Source of the DNA: a virus
Direction: 5' to 3' (one strand)
Length of the DNA stretch: 30,067 nt
IMG/VR virus record: IMGVR_UViG_3300005253_000413
Location: 1-30,067 of that record
The notes under the pieces were generated by a model. It had not been told where the DNA came from. It saw nothing but the letters and a program-made list of their open reading frames with translations, and did no database searches. Position 1 is the first letter of the stretch. Each line of letters begins with the position of its first letter. Positions 1 through 30,067 of this stretch are shown here, piece after piece. The position numbers and the translations under genes were made by a program.

Positions 1-391
1 GGTCTTTTCCAAGGCGGGTTGGCCGCGGGCGGAGGCAGGGGGGTGCCCCCCCGTTGTGCCGGCCGGGAAACACCCCCCCGCCGCGGCCGCCTGTCCCGGC
101 CCCGCCACCGCGGCGGATCGCCACAAGAAAAAGACCGTCCGGCGTGACACCGATTGCGGTCGGTGTGTTCTGCAGGGCGCCGTCGGTGGCCGGGCCGATC
201 GACCACGTCGCAGCGGCGACGGCCGGATCGCAGATCATCACGCCCCGCTCCGGTATCGGCCCCGTCACCACGCCCTCGGTCGGGCTCACGTCTGGGTCAA
301 ACCGGACCTCACCGAGGAGCGATCGAAGCCCGCCGGCCGCGGTGCGGTAGCGGCCCTGCCAACCGCCGCCGGGGTAGGAGTCGTCACTCAT
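1..391 (-). CDS. Tail protein downstream of hub, partial at left edge
   Basis: The reading frame opens with ATG at 391, overlapping the stop of the hub gene in ATGA, and runs off the window with no stop. It begins MSDDSYPGGGWQGRYRTAAGG and continues through VRFDPDVSPTEGVVTGPIPERGVMICDP and a segment giving GVTPDGLFLVAIRRGGGAG. About 130 residues are visible. Its place directly after the tape measure and hub genes suggests a further tail-tip, baseplate or fibre protein, but I recognise no family. The last 25 or so codons cross a very G/C-rich stretch with a G6/C7 hairpin (positions 38-52), where the frame may not be reliable. Confidence 0.7.
   Translation of the reverse strand, partial: MSDDSYPGGGWQGRYRTAAGGLRSLLGEVRFDPDVSPTEGVVTGPIPERGVMICDPAVAAATWSIGPATDGALQNTPTAIGVTPDGLFLVAIRRGGGAGTGGRGGGVFPGRHNGGAPPCLRPRPTRLGKD
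38..79. repeat. G/C homopolymer hairpin
   Basis: Six G at 38-43 are followed, after TG, by seven C at 46-52, and another seven-C run sits at 73-79. This can fold as a very stable hairpin and is a natural stalling or miscall point. It lies inside the partial left-edge gene, so its frame beyond this point is uncertain. Confidence 0.4.
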
Positions 392-1458
392 GCGGTTGGC
401 CCCTTGGCCTGGATCTCGTGGGTCCAGTCTTTGCCGGTGCCGCGGACGCGGGTCTTGATCCTGTTGATCAGCATATCGACGTTGGCCAGCCCTTGGTCCG
501 GCAGGTTGACCACCACCTCCTGCCCTACCTCGAAGCCCGGGACCCTCGTCACGCCGACAAACGTTTTGCTACTCAGGGTGACGGAATACCGGGCGAGCAA
601 CGCCTCGGCGAGGGCGAGAAGGTGCTGGCGGTTCGTGACCGAGGGCCGATCGAAGCGTTTGGTATGGACGCCCGCCGTCCCCTCGTGCGCGGCCCGTGCC
701 GCGATCTCGACGTTGTTGCTTTTCTGCGCCACCCAATTGTGGATGTTGTCCCCGCCTACCACGATCACCCGGTTGGCGTAGCAGCTCAAATCGGGGTTGA
801 CCTTCGGCTTCTCAGCCTGGGGCGGCCGCTCGAGGTTCGCGCTGTCCAGCGTGACGGGTGAGCCCGGGGGCGTCGTCGGCTTGCGGAATTGTAGGTCGAG
901 CGTTCCCGCCGGCCAGCTTGCCGGGACGTCGATCCAATAGGAGAAACCGCTAAACTCCGTCAGGTCGGTAAAGGCCTGCTGTACCGTGATCGTGTTGGCG
1001 ACGAACTCCCGCCACCGGGGGCCCTGCTCGACGCCGGTGTACGTCAATCCCTCGACGGATATGTCCGTCGTGTCCAGTATGTCGGGGACGATCTGGTCGA
1101 GGTTGCGGCGCTCGTAGCGCCGGGTCACGTAGAACCGATCAAAAAGCTGTTCATAGCTGCCCGCTTTGCACTTCCAATGCAGTAGGGTGCCCCCCAGCTC
1201 GGCCTCGTCCGCCTTCGTCAGCAATCCGGCGAACCGCAGGCGCAACGTCGTCGGTCCGCCGGGCGTGTCTTGGGTGAGCTCCTCGATGATCACCGGCATT
1301 CCGGTTGAGGGACGAAACGCCCCCTTCTCGTCGGCCATCGTCCACTCCGCCGTCGAGCGGCCGTTGAGCAGGCGCTCCCATTGGAGGGTTTCTTGCTTGA
1401 TCAGGATGGTGCGGTCGCCGGCGTCTACCGTGACAATCGCGCTGTGCGTGAAGGCCAT
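388..1458 (-). CDS. Siphophage tail hub / tail-tip protein
   Basis: 356 residues from ATG 1458 (MAFTHSAIVTVDAGDRTILI), one base after the tape measure stop. The frame extends upstream to 1686 inside the tape measure gene, but that extension is low-complexity shadow, so the start at 1458 is preferred. The protein has the layout of hub-type tail proteins: an N-terminal beta domain (residues 1-100, with PVIIEELTQD and LRLRFAGLLTKADE), a middle part with YVTRRYERRNLDQIVPDIL, and a C-terminal beta-rich part ending VGQEVVVNLPDQGLANVDMLINRI. Position after the tape measure gene fits the ring that caps the tail tube and carries fibres. The family call rests on layout and gene order, not on a diagnostic motif. 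Confidence 0.65.
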   Translation of the reverse strand: MAFTHSAIVTVDAGDRTILIKQETLQWERLLNGRSTAEWTMADEKGAFRPSTGMPVIIEELTQDTPGGPTTLRLRFAGLLTKADEAELGGTLLHWKCKAGSYEQLFDRFYVTRRYERRNLDQIVPDILDTTDISVEGLTYTGVEQGPRWREFVANTITVQQAFTDLTEFSGFSYWIDVPASWPAGTLDLQFRKPTTPPGSPVTLDSANLERPPQAEKPKVNPDLSCYANRVIVVGGDNIHNWVAQKSNNVEIAARAAHEGTAGVHTKRFDRPSVTNRQHLLALAEALLARYSVTLSSKTFVGVTRVPGFEVGQEVVVNLPDQGLANVDMLINRIKTRVRGTGKDWTHEIQAKGPTA

Positions 1459-1459
1459 A

Positions 1460-4400
1460 TCAGCAGCTACCCAGGCCGGCGTCGTCGAGGATGCCGGCGG
1501 CCTTCCGGACAACCGTCTCGGCGACCTTGTCGCCGTCCAGAATCGAGTCCACGCGGAGGTGGATATCGCAGCCGCCATCCCGGAAGCCGTCGCCGCGGAA
1601 GCCGTCGCCGTCGCGGTCCATGCCCCGGTCCCGATCTCGGCGGAGGCGCTCGGCCTCGCCCCCCGGGTGATCGATGGCCAGGTCACGGTTGACCCGCTCC
1701 CACTCCGCCGACGTCCTGCGCGCGGCCGCGGCCTGGTCGTCGCCCAGCTGCTTGGCGTGCTCGGAGCCGATCACCTGGATATCGACGATCGACGAGAATC
1801 CGACGGTCGAGGCCCTGGTGGCCAGCCAGGCCTTGGTGGTCCGGGTGGCTGAGGCGACCCACGCGTCCCCGGTGGCCTCCGCCGCGCTGATTGCGATCGA
1901 GGCGATCTGGGTCTGGGCCCGAGCGGTGACGGAGACCTTCTGGGCCTCAGCCCGCTTGATAGCTTCCAGCGTGTCGCGGGTCGCGGTCGTCGTCACGGCG
2001 ACCTGCTTGGCGACCTCGGTCGACACCGCAGCTGTCGCGGCCGTCGCGGCTTCAGCCGCCGCGGTGGTGCTGGCGATCGTGGCCTGGGTCGCCGCGTTGA
2101 TCTGGTCGATAACGCCCTGGACGGCTGAGCCGCCCTTCTTCTCGGCTTCGAACAGTCGCGCCCCCCACTGTTGCGCCTGGACGCTCGCGGCCTCGGCAGC
2201 GACGCCGGCCGCGATCAGCTTTTGCTGGATCGAGGCGAGAAAAGCCGCGCCCTCGACCTGGTTCGGAAACTGCAGTTTGACGTCGGCAAGCACCTCGGCG
2301 TCCAGCTCGCTGCGGATAGAGTCGCGGAACGCGGCCGCCACTGATCGGCCCTCCTTCTCCGCGCCCGATGGGCCACCGAACAGGCTCTTAAAAAAGCCGC
2401 CGATTTTCTTCAGGCCCTTGCCCAGGAGCGCGGTGAGTTTTCCGATCAGAGGGGCGATCAGCGGACCGATCAGCGGCAGCGCGAAGCCGACCGCGGCGCC
2501 CAGGCCCTTGGACAGAAAGCCGCCGATCGGCGAGCCCTCTTTGAACAGGCCGCCCAGCTTCTCCTTCAGGAAGTCGGTCCCTTGGTTTACGAAGCCCTGC
2601 AGCTCCCCGACCCCCCCTTTGATCTGGCCGCCGATAAAATCGAAGGCCCCGCCGAGCTTCCCGAGGATCGGGATCCCCTCGAGCAGCCCGCCGAGAAACC
2701 CCTGGGTCGCCTTGGCGCCTTCGTTCATGGCGTCGTTGAGACCGAGCTGCCGCCGCTGGGATTCCTGGATCGCCGGGCCCCACTCCCCGCGGAGCTGCTG
2801 GGCCGCGCGGATCAGCTCGTCCGTGTTGTCGCGGTACGCGGTGAGCGCCAGGCCCTCCTCGAGGGTGAGGCCCTGCTGCTGGGCGATCACCTCGGCGAGG
2901 GCAAAAGCGTTGCTGTCGGACGCGGCCGCCATGCGGGTCAGCGCGTCCTCGATGCTGTCGCCGGTGGCCTTGACGGACGCCGGCAGGCCGGCCATGGATC
3001 CGCCGAAAAGATCGAGGGCGTTGGTGGCCGCCGGCATGGTCCCCACGATCCCGTCGACCGCCGCGTCCTGCTCGTTGATGTCCTGGGTGAGGGCGTCGAT
3101 CGTCTTGCCCACCTCCGGGTTGAGGCGGCCGATCTCCTCGAGCTTTTTCCGGTACTCCTCGAGGAGCGGCCGCATGGTGGCCACCGGCTGCTCGCCGGAC
3201 TTGATCGCGATCGCCAGATTCTCGAGCTCGGTATCGAGCTCCTCCTGGGGGATGATCCCCAGCGCCGCGATCGCCTCCGCGTAGCGGGTGGCCGGGTCGA
3301 CGCCGTCGCCGGCCGCGGTGTTGACGGTGACGAGGGCCGGGGCGAGCTCGTCGGCCAAGATCTGAGCCAGCCGCGCGGTCTCGTCGGCCGCGATCTCGGC
3401 CTGGGTCCGGTAGGTGCCGAAAGTCTGGGAGACGGCGTCCGCGGAGGCCCGGATATCGGCGACGCTCTCGGCCCCGAAGGCCTCCCGGATTCCGTCCCAC
3501 CAATTGGCGACGGCGTTCTCCTGGACCCCGAGCTGCTCGGCGAGAAACTCGCCGGCCTTCCAGCCGGCACAGAAGGCCGCGAGGGCGAGGGCCGCCACGC
3601 CCAGAGACTTGGCCAGCCCGGAGGCTCCCACGCTCGCCGCGTTGGCCGTGTTGGCCGTCGTGTTGGCGACGGTGGCCGCGGTGTTGGTGACCATCATCCC
3701 CGCGATTTTTCCGCCGACGCTCAGGAGCCTGCCGCTGATCGAGAGGACCGGACCGATCGCAGCGAGGAGCAGCCCCATCTTGAGGATCCAGCCCTGGGTG
3801 GCCGGCTCAGATCTCCAAACCACTTGACCGTCTCGGTCAGCTTTTGGATCAGAGGTGTGATCACCGGGAGGAGCTGCGCGCCCATTGTCTCGGCGAGCTG
3901 TTTGATCTCCCGCATAAAGAAGGCGGTAGAGGCCGCCGCGCCCTCGGCCTCTCGAGCGGCCGTGCCCGTGGCGTCGGTGGTCTGGGCCTGGATCTGCAGC
4001 AGCACCGCCTGGGCCCGGGCCACGTCGGTGAGTTTCTCGCCCTCCTTAATCAGGCCGTTGGCCAGCGCGACGGTCTCGAGCGCGGCCACGCGGGTGTCAA
4101 CGCCGTATTTGAAAAGGGGCTCCGAGGATCCCACCAGGCCGCTCTTGATATCGGCGAGGACCTGAGCCACCGGGACGTCGTTGAAGGCGGCCACGTCGCC
4201 GGCGATCTCCACGAAGGTCGCCGACATATCGGCGCCGGCGTCGCGCGCCAGGCCCATGGGGACGAGGAGATCCTGGATCCCGGCGGACAGTCCGAGAAAT
4301 TCCCCCGTTGTTAGAGGGATCTGGCCCTCGAGCAGCGCCAGCTTCGCGCGCACGCGGTCGGCGGAGCCACCCATGACGATGTCAAACTTGTTGCTGGCCT

Positions 4401-4623
4401 CCTCGGCGGTGGAGGCCATTTTGAAGGCGGCCGCGCCGGCCGCGAGGATCGGCAGCGTGACGCCCACGGTCATGCGATCGCCGAAGCCGGAGAGATTCTT
4501 CCCGATCTGCTGGAAGGTCTGATCTAGCCCCTGGGCCTTCCGCTTGGTGTCATCAATCCCGCGGTTGGCCCGCCGGTTGTCGGTGGTCAGATCCAGGACA
4601 GCTTCGCCGAGACTCTCAGCCAT
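1460..4623 (-). CDS. Tail tape measure protein (frame interrupted near 3805)
   Basis: The gene starts with ATG 4623 (MAESLGEAVLDLTTDN), overlapping the tail chaperone gene by 8 bases, and ends with TGA at 1460. It lies in two overlapping frames, 4623-3721 and 3823-1460. The first is coherent up to KWFGDLS; the second resumes with PATQGWILKMGLLLAAIGPV. Re-reading one base at 3805, or restoring one C in the GCCGG there, gives a single protein of about 1,054 residues. Tape measure features are an alpha-helical N-terminus, a hydrophobic stretch around GFALPLIGPLIAPLIGKLTA, and a long Ala/Thr coiled coil. The C-terminus has a GDGFRGDGFRDGG repeat and ends IHLRVDSILDGDKV. By the usual rule of about 0.15 nm per residue the tail would be near 150-160 nm. 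There is no classical slippery heptamer at the join, so a sequencing indel is more likely than programmed shifting. Confidence 0.88.
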
Positions 4624-4894
4624 CGGTGGCCCTCGGGACGGCGCCCAGCACCTCGGGGACCATGGTTACCCCGATGCCGATCTCAGCGAGCTCTGCAGCG
4701 CCAGCGACCTTGTCGCTACGCGTGACCTCCTCCGGCTCCTTGTGCCGGCGCGCGCCCCGCGCCTGGCGCCGCAGATCGCGCATATGGGCCCGGCGGTGCA
4801 GCTTCTTCATGTTGCCGGAGCCGGCCGCCGTATCGAGCACGCGCATGATCCGCTCTGTCCCTCGTATCGTTGCGGCCTCCGCGGCCGCGTCCAT
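4616..4894 (-). CDS. Tail assembly chaperone, T-like extension
   Basis: 92 residues from ATG 4894 (MDAAAEAATIRGTERIMRVL), rich in Arg and Lys in the middle, ending 8 bases inside the tape measure gene. Its frame is open upstream to at least 5035, through LASWWDAPIGVV, and is the -1 frame relative to the gene at 4927-5370. This is the normal arrangement of the G and GT tail chaperones of long-tailed phages, where a -1 slip near the end of G makes a fused GT protein. I find no textbook slippery heptamer in the overlap. The best run is six T (minus strand) at 5034-5029, not ideally phased. Independent start at 4894 is the alternative. Confidence 0.6.
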   Translation of the reverse strand: MDAAAEAATIRGTERIMRVLDTAAGSGNMKKLHRRAHMRDLRRQARGARRHKEPEEVTRSDKVAGAAELAEIGIGVTMVPEVLGAVPRATDG

Positions 4895-4926
4895 GACGAC
4901 GCCGATAGGGGCGTCCCACCAGGACG

Positions 4927-5370
4927 CTAAGCCGCCTCCTGGTCCTCCTCGGTAGAACCGTTGGAGCCAGCAGCAGAGGCCGTACCACTCTCGCCCGGCG
5001 TCGTCACGATCTCGTCGCCGAGCTCTCGAAAAAACGCTGAGATTTTCAGGAACATGCCCGGCGTCACAGCCCGCGCGTCCTCGTCGCTGATGCCGACCAG
5101 GACGACCTGGACGCCCTCGGCCACGAGGGCCTGCAGTTGCTCGAGGACCTCGGGGTCGCTGGCCTTCTCGGCGAGGTCTTGGATCGCCTTTGAGTTGCGC
5201 TGCTGCTCGGCGAATTCGTCGAAGGTAAGCTCCTCCGGGACGCGGAGCTCGTGGTCACCCGTCGGCAGCTTTACGATGGGCCGCTTGGGGGGAGTGCTGA
5301 GGTCGAGAATCTGCGGGACGTGCTCGGCCTTCGTCGCCTTCTCGCGGGTGCTGCGCTTTTTTTTGGCCAT
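4927..5370 (-). CDS. Tail assembly chaperone, G-like
   Basis: 147 residues from ATG 5370, beginning MAKKKRSTREKATKAEHVPQ and ending with an acidic, low-complexity tail (GSTEEDQEAA). The middle contains VPEELTFDEFAEQQRNSKAI and VLVGISDEDARAVTPGMFLK. Such proteins coat the tape measure during tail assembly and are lost from the finished virion. The identification rests on size, acidic C-terminus, position between the tail tube and tape measure genes, and an overlapping -1 frame downstream. Codons 3-5 contain A8 on the minus strand, including an in-phase A AAA AAG heptamer, which makes the frame here prone to slippage or miscalling. Confidence 0.7.
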   Translation of the reverse strand: MAKKKRSTREKATKAEHVPQILDLSTPPKRPIVKLPTGDHELRVPEELTFDEFAEQQRNSKAIQDLAEKASDPEVLEQLQALVAEGVQVVLVGISDEDARAVTPGMFLKISAFFRELGDEIVTTPGESGTASAAGSNGSTEEDQEAA

Positions 5371-5578
5371 GAGAATGCCTACGCCTCTCTACGCCTTGTG
5401 CGTCGAGCTCGATAACCTCGATCCCGATCGCGGTTAGTTGGTCGATATACAGCTGTTTTGCTGCGGCGGCCTCGTGCAGCTGCCGCTTGTGGAAGCGGAC
5501 CGCGCGCTTCCGCTCGAGGACCTCGGCGTGGAGCTCGTCGAAGTCCTCGAGCTGCGCGGTGCTAGCTGGTCTGGGCAC
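5255..5578 (-). CDS. Small charged protein between tail tube and chaperone genes
   Basis: The frame starts at GTG 5578, overlapping the tail tube gene by 17 bases. The first 60 or so residues look genuine: LEDFDELHAEVLERKRAVRF then LHEAAAAKQLYIDQLTAIGI, probably helical. Beyond about 5395 the frame runs inside the chaperone gene and reads as Arg/Pro-rich shadow. A one-base indel just before would end it at TAG 5391 or TAG 5381, immediately before the chaperone start at 5370. The true C-terminus is therefore unsure. Function unknown; many siphophages have a small helical gene at this spot. Confidence 0.5.
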   Translation of the reverse strand: MPRPASTAQLEDFDELHAEVLERKRAVRFHKRQLHEAAAAKQLYIDQLTAIGIEVIELDAQGVERRRHSHGQKKAQHPREGDEGRARPADSRPQHSPQAAHRKAADG

Positions 5579-6128
5579 TCATCAGGCCCGCCGGGTTGGG
5601 GTTGCCCTCGTCGTAGATCATCTGGAAATTGAGCTCCACGAGGGCCGGCTCCCCCTTCACGAAGCTGAGCTCCCTGCTGCCGGCCTCGACGACCCGCGGC
5701 ACGTCCCACTGGACGTTGCCGCCCAGGAATTGCGGAGACTTCCCGACGCCCCGCACCAGGAGGGCGATCTCCGTCGGGTCGATCCCGATATCGAGCTGGA
5801 TCGAGTCGACGGTCCCGCCGACCGTCACGCTGTTCTGGTTGAGGGCGAGCCGCATCTCCGCGATGGTGATGTCCGCCATCTGGAAGTTGATCATGACGTC
5901 GGCCTCGGGCGTGAAGGCCTTACGCGGGAAGGGTGACGCCAGGGCCCGGAAAAACTCGGTGCTTTTCTCCAAGTTCACGGAGACGCCGTCCTCGGAATAG
6001 TTGTGGGCGCCGGACGTGCCGATCAGCAACCAGTTGCCGGCGATCGCGGCATCCGCGGCGGGGAAGCCCTCCCCGACGGGACCCCAATAAACAGACAACG
6101 GACCGTTGACGATCTCGAGCTCGGCCAT
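5562..6128 (-). CDS. Major tail tube protein
   Basis: 188 residues from ATG 6128 (MAELEIVNGPLSVYWGPVGE), one base after the tail terminator stop. It is beta-rich with few Cys. It shows ASPFPRKAFTPEADVMINF and a C-terminal ELSFVKGEPALVELNFQMIY, the usual final strands of siphophage tail tube subunits. Size and place, after the head-tail connectors and before the chaperones, fit the hexameric ring protein that stacks into the tail tube. Assignment is from fold-like features and order. Confidence 0.75.
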   Translation of the reverse strand: MAELEIVNGPLSVYWGPVGEGFPAADAAIAGNWLLIGTSGAHNYSEDGVSVNLEKSTEFFRALASPFPRKAFTPEADVMINFQMADITIAEMRLALNQNSVTVGGTVDSIQLDIGIDPTEIALLVRGVGKSPQFLGGNVQWDVPRVVEAGSRELSFVKGEPALVELNFQMIYDEGNPNPAGLMSAQTS

Positions 6129-6129
6129 G

Positions 6130-6555
6130 CTATGTGACCTCCAATATGTCGGCTTTTACGGTGTAGCTCTGTCCGAGGACAGGCCACACGAGATCCTTTT
6201 CCACGTTGGGAAGGGGACCGCCGGTCGGGTTTATGTTGTGGATCAGCACGTCGTTGTGCTGCTCTCGTTCCAGCAGGGTGAAGCGTTGCGCGACAGCGCG
6301 GCGGAGCCGGCCCGCCTCGTGGTCGTTTTCCCCGTAGCAGATCGCGGTGATGGTCGTATCAACGATCGGCATAAGGTCGTTCTGCGCACCGCCACCGGCC
6401 TGGCGTATGACCAGGATTTTCTTCGGCTTCCGGACGTCCTGGGCCTTTACGATCTTGCGCGGGATCTGGTTGACGAAGATCCGATCCGCGGCCAGGGCGA
6501 AGATCTCCGGGGTCGAGCTGCAGAGGGTGTGGAGGGCGAAAAATAGGTCACGCAC
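6130..6555 (-). CDS. Tail terminator / tail completion protein
   Basis: 141 residues from GTG 6555, which overlaps the upstream stop by 8 bases. The frame is open to 6645, but that stretch lies inside the previous gene. It contains LFFALHTLCSSTPEIFALAA, RKPKKILVIRQAGGGAQ, DTTITAICYGENDHEAGRLR and a C-terminal LVWPVLGQSYTVKADILEV. The pattern of a hydrophobic N-terminal helix, an IVDTTI strand, a helix and a final YTVKADI strand is that of proteins closing the top of the siphophage tail. Place between the HK97 gp10-like gene and the tube gene agrees. Confidence 0.65.
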   Translation of the reverse strand: MRDLFFALHTLCSSTPEIFALAADRIFVNQIPRKIVKAQDVRKPKKILVIRQAGGGAQNDLMPIVDTTITAICYGENDHEAGRLRRAVAQRFTLLEREQHNDVLIHNINPTGGPLPNVEKDLVWPVLGQSYTVKADILEVT

Positions 6556-6913: not shown

Positions 6914-6915
6914 GG

Positions 6916-7722: not shown

Positions 7723-7724
7723 GG

Positions 7725-8063: not shown

Positions 8064-8066
8064 GGT

Positions 8067-8387: not shown

Positions 8388-8391
8388 TGGG

Positions 8392-8653: not shown

Positions 8654-8656
8654 GGG

Positions 8657-9543: not shown

Positions 9544-9593
9544 ATGCGTGCTCTCCTATCGTTGGTGGTCGGAGCCCTTCCGGGATCAGATCC

Positions 9594-23129: not shown

Positions 23130-23878
23130 CGGGCCCGCGCTCCGATCTGGCGCTCCTGATAGACCTCGATCCCGCCGACGAGCTCCTCCGCGTCCGGGCC
23201 CATCTTCCGGACCACACCGAGGACCTTCGAGCGGTCGACCTTCAGAAACCCGCGGGAGACCTTGGCCGGATCGAGGACGCGGAACTTGTAGACCGGCCTC
23301 GAGCTCACCCCGCGGGCCTTCGCCCTGGGCGCCGGCGCCGGCATGACGGGGACCGTCGGGGCGTCGAGGCGCTCGACGGCCGCCTCGAGGTGGCCCTGCT
23401 TCTCGAGGTGCTCGGCCGCGTCGAGCTGCTCCTGCTCGGCGACCTTCCGGGCGGCCGCCTGGCGCTGGCGCTCCGCCTCGGCCTCGAGGCGGTCCTGCTC
23501 GTCGTCGTAGGCGGCCAGACCACCCTTAACCAGGCGCTCCGCCTCGAGCAGCGGGTCCTCGATCGCCCTCCGCTGGGCGACGACCTCGAGGTGGGCCGCC
23601 TGGGTCTTGCGTTGCATCGGCCGCCAGGTCTCCTCGATTTTCTTTAGCGCCGGCTTGACCGTCTCGGTCAGAAAAGCGGCTGCCGCCTGATAGGTGTGGG
23701 CCTCGCGGATCGTCACGAAGCGCTCGGCCTCCACCACCACGAGGTCGGTCTCACCGGCGAGCTCGGCGAGCTCGGCGAGTTCCGCGTCCGTTTCGATCGT
23801 CGGGTCGTTGGTGCCGTCGGTCGGTGCGACGCCGGCGCCGAGGACGTCGATCTGTTGCTGGTCTTCGTGGTACGTCAT
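23126..23878 (-). CDS. Coiled-coil protein associated with phage recombination genes
   Basis: 250 residues from ATG 23878 (ATGA overlap with the 58-residue gene). The middle is a long charged helix (EDPLLEAERLVKGGLAAYDD, QDRLEAEAERQRQAAARKVA); the C-terminus is a small domain with YKFRVLDPAKVSRGFLKVDR and VVRKMGPDAEELVGGIEVYQ. Proteins of this shape are commonly found next to ERF or RecT genes, with a C-terminal P-x-x-x-L-x-x-D...V...GxxVY pattern. The role is unknown, probably in recombination or replication. The N-terminus is acidic. Confidence 0.7.
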   Translation of the reverse strand: MTYHEDQQQIDVLGAGVAPTDGTNDPTIETDAELAELAELAGETDLVVVEAERFVTIREAHTYQAAAAFLTETVKPALKKIEETWRPMQRKTQAAHLEVVAQRRAIEDPLLEAERLVKGGLAAYDDEQDRLEAEAERQRQAAARKVAEQEQLDAAEHLEKQGHLEAAVERLDAPTVPVMPAPAPRAKARGVSSRPVYKFRVLDPAKVSRGFLKVDRSKVLGVVRKMGPDAEELVGGIEVYQERQIGARAR

Positions 23879-24051
23879 TGTTCCATGTCTCCTTCGGGAA
23901 GCACCTCGACGTCAGGCGCCGAAATCTCAATTCTGTAGCGACGTCGCGCTCCGACGTCGCTACCGCGGCCTGTGATCCTGCATGTATCGAGTCGCCCCGC
24001 TGCAACATCTTCGACGGCAAGAGCGATCATCTTTTGCAGTAGCTCTTTCAC
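23875..24051 (-). CDS. Small unknown protein (58 residues)
   Basis: GTG 24051 lies one base after the exonuclease stop and the frame ends in ATGA overlap with the coiled-coil gene. The product is MKELLQKMIALAVEDVAAGR, LDTCRITGRGSDVGARRRYR, then IEISAPDVEVLPEGDMEQ. Codon use has more A/T than its neighbours. Tight coupling on both sides supports it as a real gene despite its size. Function unknown; it may be a partner of the recombination proteins. Confidence 0.65.
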   Translation of the reverse strand: MKELLQKMIALAVEDVAAGRLDTCRITGRGSDVGARRRYRIEISAPDVEVLPEGDMEQ

Positions 24052-24052
24052 C

Positions 24053-24682
24053 TCAAAACCTCCGGTGTGCTTGCCGCCACTTGGCGACGGTGAGGGCTGC
24101 GCGGAAAACTGCGGTCTGGGCTAGGCCGGCGTTGTTATGCGCCGGGACAAAGTGCGGCTTGGCGCGGCCCTTCAGCGTGACCACCGCCATGCGGGCCGCC
24201 GCGACGAGCTCGGGCTCCGCGTTGATCGCGCCGTGCTCCGCGGCCTCGAGGAGCAGCGGAGCGTATCCGCCGGCCACCTGGACCTCGTAAGCCTCATCCA
24301 TGATCGAGGCCTTCCAATCGACGATCAGGTGGCCCAGCTTGGTGTCGGCGAACAGGTCGAGGGTCCCGCCGTATTCGAGGACCGTATGCACCCAGCGGTG
24401 CTCGATCACGATCGGCCGGGCCTCGACGAGCTCGAGCCACTCCTGCCCGGCCTCCACAAAGGGCCGGATCCGCTCGTCGAGGGTCTCCTGCTCGAGGGTG
24501 CCGAGCAGGTGCAGCGCCATGGCCTTGTGGATCGCCTGGCCGCGGTGGAGGTAGTAGTCCGGCAGGAAGGAGAAGTCCGGCGCCATGCCGGTGCCCTCGA
24601 GGACCTGGGTCACGCTCGGGACGTGCCTCGAGCCGGGGAGGGCGTAGGTGTGGGTCCCCTCGTCAAATTGAAAATGCGCCAC
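24053..24682 (-). CDS. PD-(D/E)XK exonuclease (RecB/Cas4-like)
   Basis: 209 residues from GTG 24682 with AAGGAGG 8 bases before; the frame is open to 25171, but that part is shadow of the ERF gene. Nuclease motifs in order: HRGQAIHKAMALHLLG with His 52; EYGGTLDLFADTKLGHLIVD WKAS with Asp 109, Asp 122 and Lys 124 (the D-x-K core); then YEVQVAGGYAPLLLEAA with Gln 135 and Tyr 140. This is the order of the lambda-exonuclease/RecB family. With the ERF gene upstream it forms an exonuclease-annealase pair that can recombine phage DNA or repair packaged ends. Confidence 0.85.
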   Translation of the reverse strand: MAHFQFDEGTHTYALPGSRHVPSVTQVLEGTGMAPDFSFLPDYYLHRGQAIHKAMALHLLGTLEQETLDERIRPFVEAGQEWLELVEARPIVIEHRWVHTVLEYGGTLDLFADTKLGHLIVDWKASIMDEAYEVQVAGGYAPLLLEAAEHGAINAEPELVAAARMAVVTLKGRAKPHFVPAHNNAGLAQTAVFRAALTVAKWRQAHRRF

Positions 24683-24695
24683 GCGGTCGCCTCCT

Positions 24696-25652
24696 TCACT
24701 TGATCGGGCCGTGGGTCTGAAACCAGCGGACGGTCGCCTCGTACGCGTCGCCCAGACTGGGGATCTCGGACGCCCGCATTGATAGCACGCGCACGACCTC
24801 GTTGTCCACGTCCTCCCGCCTCCACCCGTTCTTACTCGCGAAGTTATAGAGGCGGCCTTGCTGGGTGGTGCTGATCGTCTGCTCCCGGTCGCCCGGAAAC
24901 ATGGCCATGACCTCGTGGAGCTCCTCGACCTCGAGGACGTCGCCGGGCCCGTTGGCGCCAGCGCCAGGCTCCTGACCCTGGGCCCGCGGCTGCTCGAGCG
25001 GTCGCTGCTGCGCTGGGGCACCGCCGGCGCCGTCGTCGTCCTTGCCGGCTGCGATGCCGATTGCCGCCTTGAGTGTGTACCGCTGTAGATAGGAAACGGT
25101 CGACGCGATCGCCTGGATCGCGTTCTTACTTCCGGTGGTATCCGGCGGCCCGAATAGGCTCGCCTCCTCACTGTGGCCGGCCGCGTGGGTGACGATACAG
25201 GTCACCTTGATGAGGTCCGGCGTGTCCTGCTCGATGCTCCACCGGAAGGAGAGGCCGTGTTGCGCCATCACCGGGGAGAGATCCTCGACCATGGTCGCCA
25301 GCGCCTCGTGGCGGTAGGAGACGCGGCCGGCTTTCTTCGTTGGGTAGTCGACGATCTCGGTCTTGACGACCTCGGGAAGGTCAGCGCGGAGCGCCGAGAC
25401 CGCGGCGTTATATTCCTGCCGCGCCAGGCCGGCCTGGTAGCGTTCGTGGACGGCCAGCAGCCGCTCGATCACCTCGACGTCGACGCCGGAGCTCACGGCA
25501 TCGCCGAGGATCCGCATCAGGGCGACACCGGGATCCTCGTCCGGGTCGGCGTCGATGGCCTCGGCCTCGAGCGTCTCGGATGATTCGTCGACGTCGTCGA
25601 CGAGCTCGGCCTCGAGGACCTGGTCCTCCGGCTCCTTGGTCTGTTCTTCCAT
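24696..25652 (-). CDS. erf: ERF-family single-strand annealing protein
   Basis: 318 residues from ATG 25652 with AAGGAGG upstream. An acidic start (EAELVDDVDESSETLEAEAI) is followed by the ERF core: AVHERYQAGLARQEYNAAVS, LPEVVKTEIVDYPTKKAGRV SYRHEALATMVEDLSP, LSFRWSIEQD and AIASTVSYLQRYTLKAAIGI. The YLQRY-x-L motif near the end of the core is characteristic. A linker (QQRPLEQPRAQGQEP) leads to a C-terminal domain (QGRLYNFASKNGWRREDVDN) of unknown role. Such proteins anneal complementary strands and drive phage recombination. Neighbouring exonuclease and coiled-coil genes complete the module. Confidence 0.9.
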   Translation of the reverse strand: MEEQTKEPEDQVLEAELVDDVDESSETLEAEAIDADPDEDPGVALMRILGDAVSSGVDVEVIERLLAVHERYQAGLARQEYNAAVSALRADLPEVVKTEIVDYPTKKAGRVSYRHEALATMVEDLSPVMAQHGLSFRWSIEQDTPDLIKVTCIVTHAAGHSEEASLFGPPDTTGSKNAIQAIASTVSYLQRYTLKAAIGIAAGKDDDGAGGAPAQQRPLEQPRAQGQEPGAGANGPGDVLEVEELHEVMAMFPGDREQTISTTQQGRLYNFASKNGWRREDVDNEVVRVLSMRASEIPSLGDAYEATVRWFQTHGPIK

Positions 25653-25670
25653 GGGTTGCCTCCTTCTCGG

Positions 25671-25708
25671 CCGGCGTTGGTGCCGGCGCGGTGGTGAGAG
25701 TCTACGCG
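25671..25708. promoter_or_regulatory. Hairpin and TCTACGCG site upstream of erf
   Basis: A GCCGGC / GCCGGC hairpin (25671-25688, 6-base loop) sits between the previous gene's stop and the erf ribosome site. TCTACGCG at 25701-25708 overlaps the stop codon of that gene, about 50 bases before the erf start. The same octamer occurs at other unit starts, so a regulator binding site is possible. Confidence 0.35.
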
Positions 25709-26079
25709 TGGCGGCCGCGGCCGTCCACGGATTCCCGGCGGTATCTCCGGGCCAGCATGATGACGCGTCGGCGAGCTCCGCCGAGTTGGCGGCCGGCGGC
25801 CAAGACAGCCCGGTGACGGACCGCCCGGCGCTGACAGCCAGGGCACAACGCCCAGAAGGGGAGCAGCTCCACCACCGGCTCCGGCGGAGATCCCACGGAC
25901 CTGGTCCGGGTCTGTTTCCAGCACGGCTCGACGAAGGACCGGCCACCGCCGGAGACGTTGGACTCTCGCCAACAGCGGCAGCGGTTTCGGGCCTTAAAAG
26001 CGGCGGCCTGCCGCTCCCGGTGTCGGTCCACCTCGACGGCCGCGCGGCCGATCCGGGCGAGCTCCTCGAGGCCGTTCAT
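25702..26079 (-). CDS. Cys-rich basic protein, probable zinc binder
   Basis: 125 residues from ATG 26079 (ATGA overlap; the frame is open to 26166). It is rich in Arg and Cys: FKARNRCRCWRESNVSG, SFVEPCWKQTRTRSVGS and FWALCPGCQRRAVRHRAVL. The CxC, C and CxxC groups could bind one or two zinc ions. It ends RYRRESVDGRGRHA. DNA or RNA binding seems likely from charge, but no family is recognised. Confidence 0.6.
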   Translation of the reverse strand: MNGLEELARIGRAAVEVDRHRERQAAAFKARNRCRCWRESNVSGGGRSFVEPCWKQTRTRSVGSPPEPVVELLPFWALCPGCQRRAVRHRAVLAAGRQLGGARRRVIMLARRYRRESVDGRGRHA

Positions 26080-26318
26080 TTGTCCAGCGTCATGGAGGCC
26101 AGCAGATACCAGCGGCCACCGCCGGCGGTGTGGAAGCTGACCAGCTGCAGGGTGGTGAGGTCCCACTTTTTGTCCGCGTCCATTCTGGCCTGGACGAAGG
26201 CCTCGAGGTCGTCGAGCTCGACGCGGAGGCTGGCCTCGTCCTCCTCGGGGATCCGGAGCAAAAGTAGATCTATCTCCTTTGTTGCTTTGGGTGGTTTGGG
26301 TGGTTTGTCGTTGGCCAT
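26076..26318 (-). CDS. Small unknown protein
   Basis: 80 residues from ATG 26318, one base after the upstream stop (TAG C ATG). A Lys/Pro-rich start (MANDKPPKPPKATKEIDLLL) then RIPEEDEASLRVELDDLEAF and SFHTAGGGRWYLLASMTLDK. The Lys/Pro start is coded by a GGTTTGGGTG-like repeat (26288-26308). Likely alpha-beta with a final strand; function unknown. Confidence 0.6.
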   Translation of the reverse strand: MANDKPPKPPKATKEIDLLLLRIPEEDEASLRVELDDLEAFVQARMDADKKWDLTTLQLVSFHTAGGGRWYLLASMTLDK

Positions 26319-26319
26319 G

Positions 26320-26553
26320 CTAGTGACCCTCCGCGGCCCTGATGATCGCGCGGCACCGATCGAGGGCCTGCTGGCGGCCGTGGGCCTCGAAGGGCTGGGC
26401 CACCTTGTCGACAAAGGGCGAGCTGTAGGCGTCCTCGAGGGCCGCCTGGCCCAGCTCCCCTCCGTACCACCGCTTCACCTGATAGTTACCGTTTGTGTGG
26501 CGGTAGCCCCACCACTGCAGCTCGAAGCCGCTGAGCTTCTCCGCGCCCCTCAC
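26320..26553 (-). CDS. Small phage protein (YRHTNG motif)
   Basis: 77 residues from GTG 26553 (GTGA overlap). Contains LQWWGYRHTNGNYQVKRWYG then DAYSSPFVDKVAQPFEAHGR QQALDRCRAIIR. The pattern of YRHTNG-x-x-QVK, SPFV and PF-x-A-x-x-R-x-x-A is one I recognise as recurrent in phage early regions. No function known. Confidence 0.7.
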   Translation of the reverse strand: MRGAEKLSGFELQWWGYRHTNGNYQVKRWYGGELGQAALEDAYSSPFVDKVAQPFEAHGRQQALDRCRAIIRAAEGH

Positions 26554-26789
26554 GAGTCGCCCTCATCGGCTAGGGCGGCATCCCGTAGCGCCATGAAAGC
26601 CTCCTTGCGCTTGGTCGCGTCGGGCCCGGTGTCTTCGTTTCCGTGGCGGTCTCCGACGAGAAGAAAATTGCAGCGTTCACATTGCCAAAAATAGAGCCTT
26701 GGCCTCGATCGTCCCTGGTTCACTTGCATGATGCAGGTGCAGGCGTGGCCCTCGGCCTTGCACTTCGGGACCTCGCCGCGGCCTCTCAC
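26550..26789 (-). CDS. Zinc-finger-like small protein
   Basis: 79 residues from GTG 26789 (GTGA overlap). Metal ligands are visible in PKCKAEGHACTCIMQVNQG and YFWQCERCNFLLVGDRHGNE: a Cys/His cluster followed by a C-x-x-C ribbon. An acidic helical end follows. Could bind nucleic acid or a host protein; function unknown. Confidence 0.65.
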   Translation of the reverse strand: MRGRGEVPKCKAEGHACTCIMQVNQGRSRPRLYFWQCERCNFLLVGDRHGNEDTGPDATKRKEAFMALRDAALADEGDS

Positions 26790-27187
26790 GAGCTCGCCCG
26801 CAGCGCGGCCGCTTGGTAGCGGTGCAACGGGGAGCAGTAGAGGCCCTTCCGCTTGCGCACCTTGTCCGTGAGCTCGGCGCGGCAGCTGATCAGCCCGCAG
26901 CGGCCGCCGTTGATCACCTGCATACGGCGCTCGAGGGCGTGGCAGGTCTGCCGGAGCTCCTCGACGACCTCGAGGACCTCGGCGTCGCCGGCGGCCAGCC
27001 AGACGCCGACGCGGGGGGAGCTGAGGACCTGGACGCCGGCCTCCTGGGCCTCGTGGATCAAGGCCCGCACGGTGGAGCTCGCCGGCTGGCCCGGAAGGAA
27101 CGCCGACAAGTGGCTGATGCTGATCGCGTTGGCGCGGCCCACCGGGAGCACCGCCCGGATCGTGGCGTGGATATCTGCGCGGGTCAC
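26786..27187 (-). CDS. Winged-helix-like regulator with C-terminal zinc motif
   Basis: 133 residues from GTG 27187 (GTGA overlap). The first half resembles a winged helix: ADIHATIRAVLPVGRANAIS, ISHLSAFLPGQPASSTVRAL, HEAQEAGVQVLSSPRVGVWL. A helix follows (VLEVVEELRQTCHALERRMQ), then RCGLISCRAELTDKVRKRKG LYCSPLHRYQ, with Cys/His positions that may bind zinc. Likely an early DNA-binding regulator. No named family. Confidence 0.65.
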   Translation of the reverse strand: MTRADIHATIRAVLPVGRANAISISHLSAFLPGQPASSTVRALIHEAQEAGVQVLSSPRVGVWLAAGDAEVLEVVEELRQTCHALERRMQVINGGRCGLISCRAELTDKVRKRKGLYCSPLHRYQAAALRASS

Positions 27188-27339
27188 CGTCTCACCTCCT
27201 GCTGGTGGATCGTCTCGAGCAATCGCCGGATGGTGTCCGGCCGGGTGTAGCCCAGGCGCCGACAGACCTCCTCGGCCTCCTCCTTGTCGCCGGCGCGCAC
27301 CGCCAGGCGGAGCAGCCGCCACAGCACGGTGCGGCTCAC
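27184..27339 (-). CDS. Small helical protein (51 residues)
   Basis: GTG 27339 (GTGA overlap) gives MSRTVLWRLLRLAVRAGDKE, then EAEEVCRRLGYTRPDTIRRL LETIHQQEVRR. Two or three helices, basic, perhaps a helix-turn-helix-like bundle. It overlaps the next gene by GTGA. Function unknown. Confidence 0.6.
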   Translation of the reverse strand: MSRTVLWRLLRLAVRAGDKEEAEEVCRRLGYTRPDTIRRLLETIHQQEVRR

Positions 27340-27593
27340 CGGGCCGCCGACCTGATCGCCTTGATCAGCGGGAAGACACCCCGCCGATACTTGCCGCCCT
27401 GGCGGTCGATCCACTTCCCCGTCCCCGGCCAGAAGTCCCAGCGGCCGGCGACGACCAGGTGGGCGCCGTCGTTGTGAACGGTGAAGGCCACGCCCGCGTG
27501 CTCGAGGAGCCCGCGGGAGCTCGCACGGTTGGCGGCCCGCTTCTTCTGGCTGTGTTCCCGGAGGCCGTCGAAGGTTTCGCCGAGGTCGCTCAT
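27336..27593 (-). CDS. Conserved small phage protein (DFWPGTGKW motif)
   Basis: 85 residues from ATG 27593 (ATGA overlap; the frame is open upstream). A helical start (DGLREHSQKKRAANRASSRG) leads to GVAFTVHNDGAHLVVAGRWD FWPGTGKWIDRQGGKYRRGV. The FWPxTGKW...GRG-x-x-x-L pattern recurs in phage early proteins. It is possibly a small nucleic-acid binding fold; role unknown. Confidence 0.7.
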   Translation of the reverse strand: MSDLGETFDGLREHSQKKRAANRASSRGLLEHAGVAFTVHNDGAHLVVAGRWDFWPGTGKWIDRQGGKYRRGVFPLIKAIRSAAR

Positions 27594-28144
27594 GGTTTGC
27601 CGTCGTTGTCGAGGATCTCCGCCCTCGCCTCGAGGCTCACCTCGGAGCCGAGCAGCAGCAGCTCGTTGCCCTTCGTGATCGTGCACCGTTTGGAGTCGGG
27701 GGCTGAGCCGACGAGGCGGACCTCCGCGTCGCCGTTGGAGCAGAAACCCATGACTCGCCACTCGTCGCCGTAGCAACGGACGTGATCGCCGACGACGAGG
27801 TCCTGGGTCCGGACCCAGCGGGACCCAGCGGGATCTGACGGGATCTCTCCGGAGCCGTCCGGCGGCTCCGCGACACTCACGCAGAGATCAGCGAACGCCC
27901 TAGCAACCCGCCCGGGAGGAATGCCCTCCGTGGCCGCGGCCGCCACCAGGTCCGCGGTGATCGCTTCGATATGCTTGAAGACCTCCTTGAGCGGCTCCTC
28001 GAGGACGCCGACGATCAGGCCGCCGCGGCCTTGTACAGCACCGCGGCGGATCCCCTCGCGGTACCCCTCCGCCCAGGTGCAGATCGCCACCGGGCCGACG
28101 AGCTGAAAAGCCCGGTGCAGCTGATCGTGGTCGTAGTCGCTCAC
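27590..28144 (-). CDS. Unknown early protein with C-terminal beta domain
   Basis: 184 residues from GTG 28144, 3 bases after a GAGGAGGAGGCAAC site. An N-terminal helical half (DQLHRAFQLVGPVAICTWAE, EEPLKEVFKHIEAITADLVA) and a C-terminal beta half (TQDLVVGDHVRCYGDEWRVM, GFCSNGDAEVRLVGSAPDSK). The second half looks like a small SH3-like barrel. The linker is coded by short repeats of GGACCCAGC (27814-27836). Function unknown. Confidence 0.6.
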   Translation of the reverse strand: MSDYDHDQLHRAFQLVGPVAICTWAEGYREGIRRGAVQGRGGLIVGVLEEPLKEVFKHIEAITADLVAAAATEGIPPGRVARAFADLCVSVAEPPDGSGEIPSDPAGSRWVRTQDLVVGDHVRCYGDEWRVMGFCSNGDAEVRLVGSAPDSKRCTITKGNELLLLGSEVSLEARAEILDNDGKP

Positions 28145-28259
28145 GATGTTGCCTCCTCCTCGTTGGTGTACGTGTACGGTTTGCCAAACAGCGCAACGGC
28201 CCCCGCGCCCGGTGCTGCTGGACGCGGGGGCCGCGTGTCCCCAGGGTGGCGATCGCCTC
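28145..28259 (-). terminator. GC hairpin and palindrome between early genes
   Basis: Arms 28198-28207 and 28223-28232 form a perfect 10-base stem with a 15-base loop, shortly after the stop of the 173-residue gene in the direction of transcription. There is no T-run, so termination may be partial. On the downstream side lies a 5-1-5 palindrome (GTTTG C CAAAC, 28179-28189) before the next ribosome site, a possible operator. Confidence 0.45.
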
Positions 28260-28781
28260 TCAATCCACGACGCCGTGGACGATCGCCTGGGCGCCGGTGT
28301 CGTTGACGTTGACCAGCAGCTCGGTGCCGTGCTTGCGGTTGAGGCCGTCGACGATGCCGCGGGCCGTCCTGAGAAACCGCGCGGCCGCGCCGTTGCTGTG
28401 ATCGACGACGGTCCAGAAACCGAAGCGGAGCTCCCCGGGGCGGTCGAAGCCCTCGCCGTAGGGGATCGTGATCTCGGTCAGTGGTGAGACCTTGTGGACC
28501 TTGGAGATCTCGGCGGCCGCGCGGGCGAGGCCCTCAAATTCGGCATCCGCGTCGGCGTGCGTCGGCTTGCAGGCCTCACACAGTCCCGTCCAGGCGCCGG
28601 CGACGAGCTCGAGGCCGGCCGCGGCCAGCTTGCGGGTGTCGACGACGAAGCCGAGCTCCCAGCTGGTGGTGCACTCGGAGCAGAAGGCAACGATGGCGCG
28701 GCCGCTCGTCCCGCCCTGCTTGCACCAGTGGAGGGGAGTGCGGGGCTGGCCGCAGCCGAAGGGACAAAGGTTGTTGCTCAT
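28260..28781 (-). CDS. Zinc-binding early protein
   Basis: 173 residues from ATG 28781 (ATGA overlap). Several Cys pairs in the first 75 residues: NLCPFGCGQPRTPLHWCKQG, IVAFCSECTTSWELG and GLCEACKPTHADADAE, suggesting one or two zinc sites. The second half has PLTEITIPYGEGFDRPGELR FGFWTVVDHSNGAAARFLR. Function unknown. A strong GC hairpin follows its stop. Confidence 0.6.
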   Translation of the reverse strand: MSNNLCPFGCGQPRTPLHWCKQGGTSGRAIVAFCSECTTSWELGFVVDTRKLAAAGLELVAGAWTGLCEACKPTHADADAEFEGLARAAAEISKVHKVSPLTEITIPYGEGFDRPGELRFGFWTVVDHSNGAAARFLRTARGIVDGLNRKHGTELLVNVNDTGAQAIVHGVVD

Positions 28782-29065
28782 GAGGTCACCGCGGGTCGGA
28801 GGGAATAGGTCGGTTCGATCATCAGCTCGAGCGCCCGCCGGAGCTCGAGGTCATAGTGGCCACTACCGAAGCCGCCGGCGGTGGCGTTGTAGGTCCACTT
28901 GGCGAAAGTGCCGTCCGCCCGCCGGGCGATCACGACGAACAGATACGAGTCGGCCGCGACGGCGGTCATGGGCCGGAAGCCGATCAGCTCGAAGCGGTCG
29001 CCGAAGTTGGCAACGAAGGCCGCCGGCAGCGTGGCCGCGGCTAGGGTCAGCGGGGTGGCGCTCAT
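28778..29065 (-). CDS. Small unknown early protein
   Basis: 95 residues from ATG 29065 (ATGA overlap). Reads LPAAFVANFGDRFELIGFRP, SYLFVVIARRADGTFAKWTY then FGSGHYDLELRRALELMIEP. Mixed alpha-beta fold with a central strand pair. No family recognised. Confidence 0.65.
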   Translation of the reverse strand: MSATPLTLAAATLPAAFVANFGDRFELIGFRPMTAVAADSYLFVVIARRADGTFAKWTYNATAGGFGSGHYDLELRRALELMIEPTYSLRPAVTS

Positions 29066-29262
29066 GATCTAGCCTCCTCCTCGACGGGGCCGTGGACCAC
29101 GGCGACCAGCTTCCCGATCGCGTGGAGCAAGGTCTCCCGCTCGGTGGTGTCACCGCGGAACTTCGCGCGGCTCAGATTCAGACGGTTGAGGATTGCCTCG
29201 GACTCGGCCACGCTCAGACGGGCCGGGCGGCCGGTGCCGCTGCGCCGCGCGTGTAGTGCCAT
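29062..29262 (-). CDS. First gene of the early operon, small unknown protein
   Basis: 66 residues from ATG 29262 with AAGGAGG upstream. Begins MALHARRSGTGRPARLSVAE, then SEAILNRLNLSRAKFRGDTT and LLHAIGKLVAVVHGPVEEE. Basic N-terminus, helical rest. As the first gene behind a candidate promoter and operator it is likely to be an immediate-early product. Function unknown. Confidence 0.65.
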   Translation of the reverse strand: MALHARRSGTGRPARLSVAESEAILNRLNLSRAKFRGDTTERETLLHAIGKLVAVVHGPVEEEARS

Positions 29263-29297: not shown

Positions 29298-29372
29298 ATT
29301 ATCCGCCTTCTGGCCCCTCGACACCAGCCCTCAATTGCCGTTTCTACGCGTAGAGACGGCCCGTCTACGCGT
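29298..29372 (-). promoter_or_regulatory. Candidate early promoter with TCTACGCG operators
   Basis: On the minus strand GATAAT (29303-29298) could serve as a -10 box for the operon starting at 29262; no convincing -35 is seen at 17 bases. About 40 bases upstream lies the perfect 12-base palindrome TCTACGCGTAGA (29343-29354), with a second TCTACGCG at 29364-29371. Two closely spaced sites upstream of a promoter suggest binding of a dimeric regulator. Confidence 0.45.
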
Positions 29373-29785
29373 GATCCTGGGGGCGCGGCCATCGTGGGGG
29401 CCTGCAGAGGTATCAGAGGCCGCCAGGCCGCGTCAGCCTGGCGGCCCCTGGGAGGCCCTGAGCCGCCGCTGATGGCTCTGGAAGGGCCCCGCCATCCGAG
29501 GGCCTTCCGGCACCGCTAGGGACCTCGGAGGAGTGGATCAGGAGGAGGGGTCAGGAGCTCGAGGGCCCCGCGTCGGCCGGGTCCGACGACTCCCCGGCAT
29601 GGACGCCGGGCCGCTCCGCACAAATCAGGCTAGCAGGGGCCGCCGGCCGGGTCGACCCAACACCCCGCCGGCGGCAGGACCGACACCTGGGGAGCAGCTC
29701 CTCCGGTCCCACCGCCGACGTTTCTCGAGGCCTCGGCGTGACCCTCGGCACGACGCGGACCCGATAGTGGGTCCTGGGTCCGCCT
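29373..29785. other. Non-coding stretch with GC hairpins
   Basis: About 410 bases between the right-edge gene and the early operon. It contains three strong inverted repeats: 29418-29427 with 29437-29446 (perfect 10 bases); 29480-29489 with 29500-29508 (one unpaired G); and 29755-29762 with 29776-29783 (perfect 8 bases, immediately after the stop of the right-edge gene on the minus strand). None has a T-run. They could stop late transcription before the early operon. Open frames here have poor codon use and are rejected. Confidence 0.5.
29755..29783 (-). terminator. Hairpin after right-edge gene
   Basis: GCGGACCC and GGGTCCGC (29755-29762 / 29776-29783) form a perfect stem that begins 2 bases after the TAA of the partial gene on the minus strand. 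Its location supports that gene's stop. No U-tract follows, so it may be a Rho-assisted or processing hairpin. Confidence 0.45.
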
Positions 29786-30067
29786 TTACCTCCCGGGGCC
29801 GGTGGTGAGGGTGATGGGCCCGCCCGCGGCCGTGATGACGGCCGGGTCGATCGTGCCGTCGTGGACGTGGTTATCGTCCTGGGAGCATTGCGGATCCGCC
29901 GCGCACAAGACGGCAAACTCCGCCGGTGTCGGCAGCCCGCCGGTGGCACAGTCGCCGGTCGCTACACACTCAGCGTACGCGCGGACAAACCAGGACTGTG
30001 TCGAGCTCGGCGACGGCGCCGACGGGGGAAACTGCGGCGCCTGGGGCGCGGTCGCATTGGGTGGCAG
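29786..30067 (-). CDS. C-terminus of a gene entering from the right edge
   Basis: A minus-strand frame with no start in the window is open from 30067 to TAA at 29786. It encodes about 93 residues: FPPSAPSPSSTQSWFVRAYA, ECVATGDCATGGLPTPAEFA, VLCAADPQCSQDDNHVHDGT, then a Gly/Thr end (AAGGPITLTTGPGR). Four Cys and a repeat-free extended end suggest a virion surface or fibre protein, but this is a guess. If the genome is circularly permuted it would be the last late gene, following the partial gene at the left edge in the full map. A hairpin follows the stop. Confidence 0.6.
   Translation of the reverse strand: MPPNATAPQAPQFPPSAPSPSSTQSWFVRAYAECVATGDCATGGLPTPAEFAVLCAADPQCSQDDNHVHDGTIDPAVITAAGGPITLTTGPGR

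What the first reader, a model, noticed from the sequence alone, without database searches (positions are those of the whole stretch)
1..30067. CTGGAG/CTCCAG appears completely absent from the window
Reading both strands I find no CTGGAG and no CTCCAG. With GC near 67% about 20 copies are expected. The inner pentamers TGGAG and TCCAG occur several dozen times, always preceded by G, A or T. Leu-Glu pairs are written CTC-GAG instead of CTG-GAG, so CTCGAG and GAGCTC are very common. CTGGAG is the target of known type IIS/IIG restriction enzymes (GsuI/BpmI). The simplest inference is strong past selection by a host enzyme with this specificity.
Basis: partly seen in the sequence, partly recalled or inferred. 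Interest (0 to 1): 0.7.

Follow-up and report, generated by a model that had tools for sequence, protein, structure and literature searches.

The report
Phage lacking every CTGGAG site
This 30-kb phage fragment has removed every copy of one six-letter DNA word, CTGGAG, where 17 to 42 would be expected, most likely because a bacterial enzyme in its host cuts or blocks DNA at that word; it is a clear case of a kind of site that phages were reported not to avoid.

Summary
CTGGAG/CTCCAG occurs 0 times in 30,067 bases; expected 17 (5-mer Markov), 22 (dinucleotide shuffle), 42 (synonymous codon shuffle) or 36 (codon shuffle that also keeps codon-junction dinucleotides). It is the most depleted hexamer in both codon nulls, and its one-base neighbours show no comparable loss. 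Leucine codon choice flips with what the junction would create: before GAG, CTC 76 and CTG 0; before CAG, CTC 0 and CTG 14. This is selection on a double-stranded DNA word, not codon bias. Relatives sharing the head-tail module keep copies, and none of 117 other stretches with an expectation of 8 or more is at zero, so the loss is specific to this lineage and must be current or recent. The best mechanism is a host restriction-modification system of the Eco57I/BpmI two-gene type. I found candidate pairs (MamA-like methylase plus ~990-aa type IIG enzyme) in two Actinomycetota genomes; MamA of mycobacteria methylates exactly CTGGAG. The phage's host is unknown, so the link is inferred. BREX/Pgl remains possible. 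A published survey found no avoidance of type IIG sites, so this is an exception worth testing.

The parts
1..30067 (.). whole record: no CTGGAG or CTCCAG on either strand
388..15570 (-). head-tail module (distal tail protein 388-1458, tape measure 1460-3823, neck/tail genes 4927-8387, major capsid 9594-10877, protease 10976-12019, portal 12204-14135, terminase large subunit 14287-15570), shared in order with relatives that keep CTGGAG
   Evidence: gene model; PHROGs; collinear relatives; codon counts for the whole window
15737..29211 (-). early/replication side: small genes of unknown function, HTH proteins, exonuclease-like 24053-24682 and 23126-23878, Erf-type annealing protein 24696-25652; no methyltransferase found among the proteins scanned
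14287..15570 (-). terminase large subunit used to find the nearest relative (L001/L058, 71% identity, which keeps 4 CTGGAG)

Best explanation
The phage lineage infects bacteria that carry a restriction-modification system reading exactly CTGGAG, most likely of the Eco57I/BpmI two-gene type: one ~990-aa enzyme that both cuts and methylates, plus a separate MamA-like methylase that protects both strands. Every unmethylated CTGGAG in incoming phage DNA is a cut point, so the phage has replaced all of them, mostly by synonymous changes (Leu-Glu as CTC-GAG, Leu-Gln as CTG-CAG). Shown: complete, exact, both-strand loss of the word, not explained by codon, codon-pair or strand effects, and recent. 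Inferred: that the agent is a nuclease, that it is of this type, and that the host is probably an actinobacterium.
For: 0 copies against 17-42 expected under four nulls; rank 1 hexamer in the codon nulls with no comparable loss in its one-base neighbours. Leu codon flips: before GAG CTC 76/CTG 0, before GAY 40/17 (Fisher 1e-7); before CAG CTC 0/CTG 14, before other CAN 12/5 (9e-5). About 11 copies expected outside the CTG-GAG codon pair, 0 seen. Both orientations gone, so each single site mattered. Relatives keep copies and none of 117 stretches with expectation 8 or more is at zero. Known CTGGAG enzymes: RM.BpmI with companion M, and M.GsuI, M.BpmI, MamA (PMC3874165; PMC3701705). Candidate intact systems: MamA-like methylases 50-55% identical to mycobacterial MamA next to 992-993-aa proteins with a conserved PD...EAK stretch and Eco57I methylase domains in G248 and G464; G248's methylase groups with MamA (99/99) and its target-recognition half is nearly as conserved as its catalytic half, 53% against 58%. 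The Eco57I subclass is constrained to its site by the companion methylase. Mycobacteriophages D29, Bxb1 and Che8, on a host with MamA described as an orphan methylase, do not avoid CTGGAG, as expected if a nuclease is needed. The tetranucleotide signature of the window is nearest mostly to actinobacterial DNA, including G248 and G464 (weak).
Against: The phage's host is not known, so no host enzyme is linked to it. A survey of phages found no avoidance of type IIG sites (PMC6286503). Specificity of the candidate pairs is inferred from similarity. The window's major capsid protein finds only distant relatives (at most 48%) in the orders of G248 and G464. Hosts of some other partly CTGGAG-depleted prophages lack a detectable homologue of this enzyme or of the methylase.
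Confidence: 0.55

Rival explanations
1. A BREX/Pgl system whose PglX/BrxX methylase reads CTGGAG (methylating the fifth base, A) blocks phage DNA carrying unmethylated sites, and the phage has lost them all.
For: BREX in E. coli HS reads an asymmetric six-base word, GGTAAG, methylated at the fifth adenine (PMC11842806); CTGGAG has the same shape. Actinobacteria carry Pgl systems (own knowledge). All sequence evidence for selection on the word fits equally.
Against: No BREX system with this site is known to me or appeared in the papers searched; the site of a PglX cannot be read from sequence here. Known CTGGAG enzymes are of the Eco57I/BpmI type.
Confidence: 0.2
2. Another restriction system with the same site: an orthodox type IIS enzyme with separate nuclease and methylases, possibly plasmid-borne.
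For: Orthodox type II sites are the ones phages usually lose (PMC6286503). Restriction systems of this general family do travel on plasmids.
Against: No orthodox type IIS enzyme for CTGGAG is known to me; the plasmid methylases are only about 40% identical to MamA, so their site is uncertain.
Confidence: 0.12
3. Codon or codon-pair bias, or avoidance of GGAG as a ribosome-binding-like word.
For: CTC-GAG is very common and Leu-Glu is the main in-frame source of CTGGAG.
Against: Leu-Gln shows the opposite codon choice, exactly where CTC-CAG would make the complement; GGAG itself is not avoided (CAGGAG 31/36, CGGGAG 33/30, GTGGAG 26/26); out-of-frame copies are gone too.
Confidence: 0.03
4. A type III restriction system.
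For: Type III sites are short and asymmetric (own knowledge).
Against: Type III cutting often needs sites in opposite orientations, so losing one orientation would suffice (discussed in PMC6286503); both orientations are gone here.
Confidence: 0.04
5. Chance, or an artefact of a library cut at CTGGAG.
For: A cut library would leave site-free fragments.
Against: Zero copies has probability about 3e-8 or less under every null, and codon choice shows active replacement, which cutting cannot do.
Confidence: 0.01

Closest known systems
Restriction-site avoidance by phages (survey PMC6286503)
   Same: complete loss of one short word in a double-stranded DNA phage, beyond codon and composition effects
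   Different: the survey finds it mostly for orthodox type II sites and not for type IIG or type I sites; here the word is asymmetric and known as a type IIG site
BpmI / GsuI (CTGGAG; BpmI is listed as type IIG, 16/14, with companion methylase)
   Same: same recognition word; two-gene layout as in the candidate loci L230 and L232
   Different: no such enzyme has been tied to this phage's host; candidate proteins' specificity untested
MamA (Rv3263, M.MtuHIII) of mycobacteria
   Same: methylates one adenine on each strand of CTGGAG/CTCCAG; relatives of it sit beside type IIG enzymes in other Actinomycetota
   Different: described as an orphan methylase without a nuclease, and three phages of Mycobacterium smegmatis tested here do not avoid the word
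BREX (BrxX/PglX)
   Same: asymmetric six-base word with A at position five
   Different: no BREX system with this word found

Membership tests
Phage restriction-site avoidance | word significantly under-represented or eliminated against a Markov or codon null | tested here: met
Phage restriction-site avoidance | exact word, both strands, independent of reading frame | tested here: met
Phage restriction-site avoidance | host (or recent host) carries an enzyme with that specificity | not testable with these tools
   host unknown; distant relatives in many phyla
Phage restriction-site avoidance | relatives on other hosts do not show it | tested here: inconclusive
   relatives keep copies (L058 4, L060+L061 18, L004 2) but their hosts are unknown
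Eco57I/BpmI-type R-M (candidate loci L230, L232, not in the window) | ~1000-aa protein with N-terminal nuclease motif and Eco57I methylase domain | tested here: met
   PD...EAK and NPPY conserved, PADLOC type IIG model over nearly the full length
Eco57I/BpmI-type R-M (candidate loci L230, L232, not in the window) | adjacent separate methylase with M.Eco57I C-terminal domain | tested here: met
   adjacent genes in G248 and G464; PF22837 found in the G248 methylase and in mycobacterial MamA; the G464 methylase was not scanned but is 50% identical to MamA
Eco57I/BpmI-type R-M (candidate loci L230, L232, not in the window) | recognition of CTGGAG | tested here: inconclusive
   only by similarity to MamA: target-recognition half 53% (G248) and 48% (G464)
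BREX/Pgl | methylase site CTGGAG in the host | not testable with these tools
   host unknown
Type III R-M | avoidance of one site orientation is enough | tested here: not met
   both orientations absent: in-frame CTC-CAG and CTG-GAG both zero; this argues against, but does not exclude

The most novel reading that the evidence does not exclude
Phages do purge sites of the Eco57I/BpmI subclass of type IIG enzymes, because the companion methylase locks these enzymes to their word; actinobacteria carry live CTGGAG systems of this kind, and mycobacterial MamA is the surviving methylase of such a system.
Probability: 0.35. Interest if true: 0.55.

Novelty: new variant of a known kind. Interest (0 to 1): 0.45.

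Why it matters
Site avoidance is a record of which enzymes phages actually meet. A published survey reports none for type IIG sites; this fragment is a clean, complete case for a word known as a type IIG site, and it suggests a testable rule: type IIG systems that need a companion methylase cannot change specificity easily and so do leave a mark on phage genomes. It also gives a host clue for an uncultured phage (look for CTGGAG methylation) and points to a possible origin for the mycobacterial methylase MamA.

Tried and rejected
Codon and codon-pair bias: rejected by opposite Leu codon choice before GAG and before CAG. Ribosome-binding-like GGAG avoidance: rejected, other GGAG words normal. 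Bipartite type I-like words: the scan used a null that ignores codon phase, so its depleted words are probably codon-phase effects; not pursued. First guess at MamA orthologues (559-aa proteins) was wrong: they are followed by a ~240-aa gene that resembles PaeR7I/XhoI from memory, so probably CTCGAG systems. True MamA orthologues were then identified by the fbiA-fbiB-methylase-manB gene order; the order in M. tuberculosis is from my own knowledge. Search for the type IIG enzyme or MamA-like methylase in hosts of other CTGGAG-poor prophages: negative apart from one distant methylase in G544. Host identification by related prophages: relatives are spread over Alphaproteobacteria, Actinomycetota and others at up to 52% identity, not decisive. 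DNA match to known phages: none. Portal, annealing and tape-measure proteins as probes in viral contigs gave little.

Full report
Check of the observation. The window is a whole virus record of 30,067 bases, 68% GC, with all clear genes on the minus strand. CTGGAG/CTCCAG occurs 0 times; dinucleotide shuffles give 21.65 +/- 4.3 and the 5-mer Markov expectation is 17.2. Because most copies would be in-frame Leu-Glu pairs, I shuffled synonymous codons among positions of the same amino acid: 42.0 +/- 5.5, minimum 27 in 300 shuffles. Keeping also the base that follows each codon gives 36.3 +/- 4.2, none of 500 at zero. CTGGAG is the most depleted of all hexamers in both codon nulls. In the 5-mer Markov test it ranks second behind CGCCGC, which is only halved. 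Even the weakest expectation gives about 7e-5 after correction for 2080 hexamers.

The word is exact. Of its 18 one-base neighbours, 16 lie within about two-fold of expectation or are raised, with CTAGAG 0 of 3.2 and ATGGAG 4 of 8.9 the lowest. CTCGAG and CTGCAG are raised, as expected if Leu-Glu and Leu-Gln pairs were moved there.

The selection acts on double-stranded DNA. Leucine before GAG is CTC 76 times and CTG never, while before GAC/GAT it is 40 to 17; leucine before CAG is CTG 14 times and CTC never, while before the other CAN codons it is CTC 12 to CTG 5. The preferred codon reverses so that neither CTGGAG nor its complement CTCCAG arises. About 11 copies are expected outside the in-frame CTG-GAG pair, and none is seen. 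Bias in codon pairs or in ribosome-binding-like words cannot do this. The gene model is my own simple predictor, so counts may shift slightly with a better one.

It is specific to this lineage and recent. The nearest relatives share the head-tail module in the same order at about 40-75% protein identity for most genes, with the tape measure and distal tail proteins lower. L058 keeps 4 copies (8.7 expected), L004 2 (4.9), and L060 plus L061 18 (25) under the stricter null; they are somewhat low, but the word's rank among hexamers in L058, L003 and L004 is unremarkable. All of 20 whole related records have copies, and none of 117 stretches with a Markov expectation of at least 8 is at zero. About 635 words in the window lie one mutation from CTGGAG, 134 of them by a synonymous change, so under equal rates zero copies means selection acted within about 1.4% divergence (all routes) or 7% (synonymous only) of the present. 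This corrects 'past' to current or recent.

What the phage is. PHROGs identify terminase, portal, protease, major capsid, tape measure, exonuclease and Erf-type annealing proteins. Pfam and PHROGs found no methyltransferase among the proteins scanned; several small genes were not scanned. No lysis genes or further minor tail genes were recognised and the record ends just past the distal tail gene, so it is probably a fragment and the absence is shown only for this part. The host is unknown. Capsid relatives occur in Alphaproteobacteria, Actinomycetota and others, the best terminase match among named phages is an Actinomycetia phage at 39%, and the tetranucleotide signature is nearest mostly to actinobacterial DNA (weak).

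Known enzymes of this specificity. RM.BpmI is listed as CTGGAG 16/14 with a companion methylase, next to Eco57I (CTGAAG, 997 aa, with M.Eco57I that methylates both strands); the need for the companion is said to confine change of specificity to the central two bases (PMC3874165). MamA of Mycobacterium tuberculosis methylates one adenine on each strand of CTGGAG and is described as lacking a nuclease; M.GsuI and M.BpmI read the same word (PMC3701705; PMC7591249).

Candidate systems. I identified mycobacterial MamA orthologues by gene order. The one scanned carries the M.Eco57I C-terminal domain PF22837. In 396 Actinomycetota genomes, MamA-like methylases at 50% identity or more outside that group occur in G248, G076 and G464. 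In G248 and G464 the methylase lies beside a 993- or 992-aa protein. The two are 41% identical over full length, with a conserved PD...EAK stretch that looks like a nuclease motif and an NPPY methylase motif, and match type IIG models. G248's methylase groups with MamA at 99/99 support, and its target-recognition half is 53% identical to MamA against 58% for the catalytic half, so the site is probably kept (inference). The same arrangement, more distant, is on plasmids of Neorhizobium, Xanthomonas citri and Lysinibacillus.

Controls. Phages D29, Bxb1 and Che8 of Mycobacterium smegmatis do not avoid CTGGAG, which fits the view that a methylase without a nuclease exerts no such pressure; MamA's presence in M. 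smegmatis is from PMC3701705. TM4 has no CTGGAG, but it also has no Leu-Glu pair written with CTC or CTG before GAG and many other missing words, so it is a different case.

Weighing. That a host system reading CTGGAG selected this genome I hold at about 0.9. That it is the Eco57I/BpmI two-gene type I hold at 0.55, with BREX/Pgl the main rival at 0.2. Against the favoured type stands the survey that found no avoidance of type IIG sites (PMC6286503). Its authors explain this by the ease with which type IIG enzymes change specificity; the companion methylase of the Eco57I subclass removes much of that ease, so an exception in exactly this subclass is reasonable. That last step is my inference.

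Noticed in passing
L230:4695-9379; L232:2805-7387; L206, L207, L208: Mycobacterial MamA carries the M.Eco57I C-terminal domain, and its relatives in G248 and G464 sit beside type IIG enzymes; MamA may be the surviving methylase of such a system. No paper holding MamA, Eco57I and Mycobacterium together was found.
   Followed up: partly
L281 (Mycobacterium phage TM4, 1-50000): TM4 has 0 CTGGAG, 0 GAGCTC in genes (29 expected), 0 CACGGG (40 expected) and no Leu-Glu pairs written CTC-GAG or CTG-GAG in the predicted genes: broad avoidance of several words.
   Followed up: no
L112 (DYFX01000025.1, 14,824 bases): A phage-like contig binned as Candidatus Paceibacter has 0 CTGGAG (11 expected), 0 CTCTTC (11) and 0 GTCGAC (8.5) in its predicted genes.
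   Followed up: no
L105 (Streptomyces sp. SID3212): 0 CTGAAG/CTTCAG against 10.5 expected, the top depleted hexamer there; this is the Eco57I word. The type IIG enzyme and the MamA-like methylase used as probes found nothing in that genome.
   Followed up: partly
L065 (Phyllobacterium leguminum prophage region): 1 CTGGAG against 15 by the Markov expectation, but only rank 9 in the codon null.
   Followed up: partly
L002/L059 (IMGVR_UViG_3300037560_000107): GGA/TCC is depleted 2.3-fold (373 of 874) and CCGCGG, CCCATC, GAGGCC are absent.
   Followed up: no
window 1-30067: CGCCGCC/GGCGGCG occurs 8 times against 45, and CATC/GATG 110 against 234, in the codon null; GATC is raised (283 against 173).
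   Followed up: no
L162-L175: About 550-aa N6 methylases in several Actinomycetota are followed by a ~240-aa gene resembling PaeR7I/XhoI, probably CTCGAG restriction systems (resemblance from memory).
   Followed up: partly
window 28778-29065: Weak match, below cut-off, to LPD24, a large polyvalent protein associated domain.
   Followed up: no
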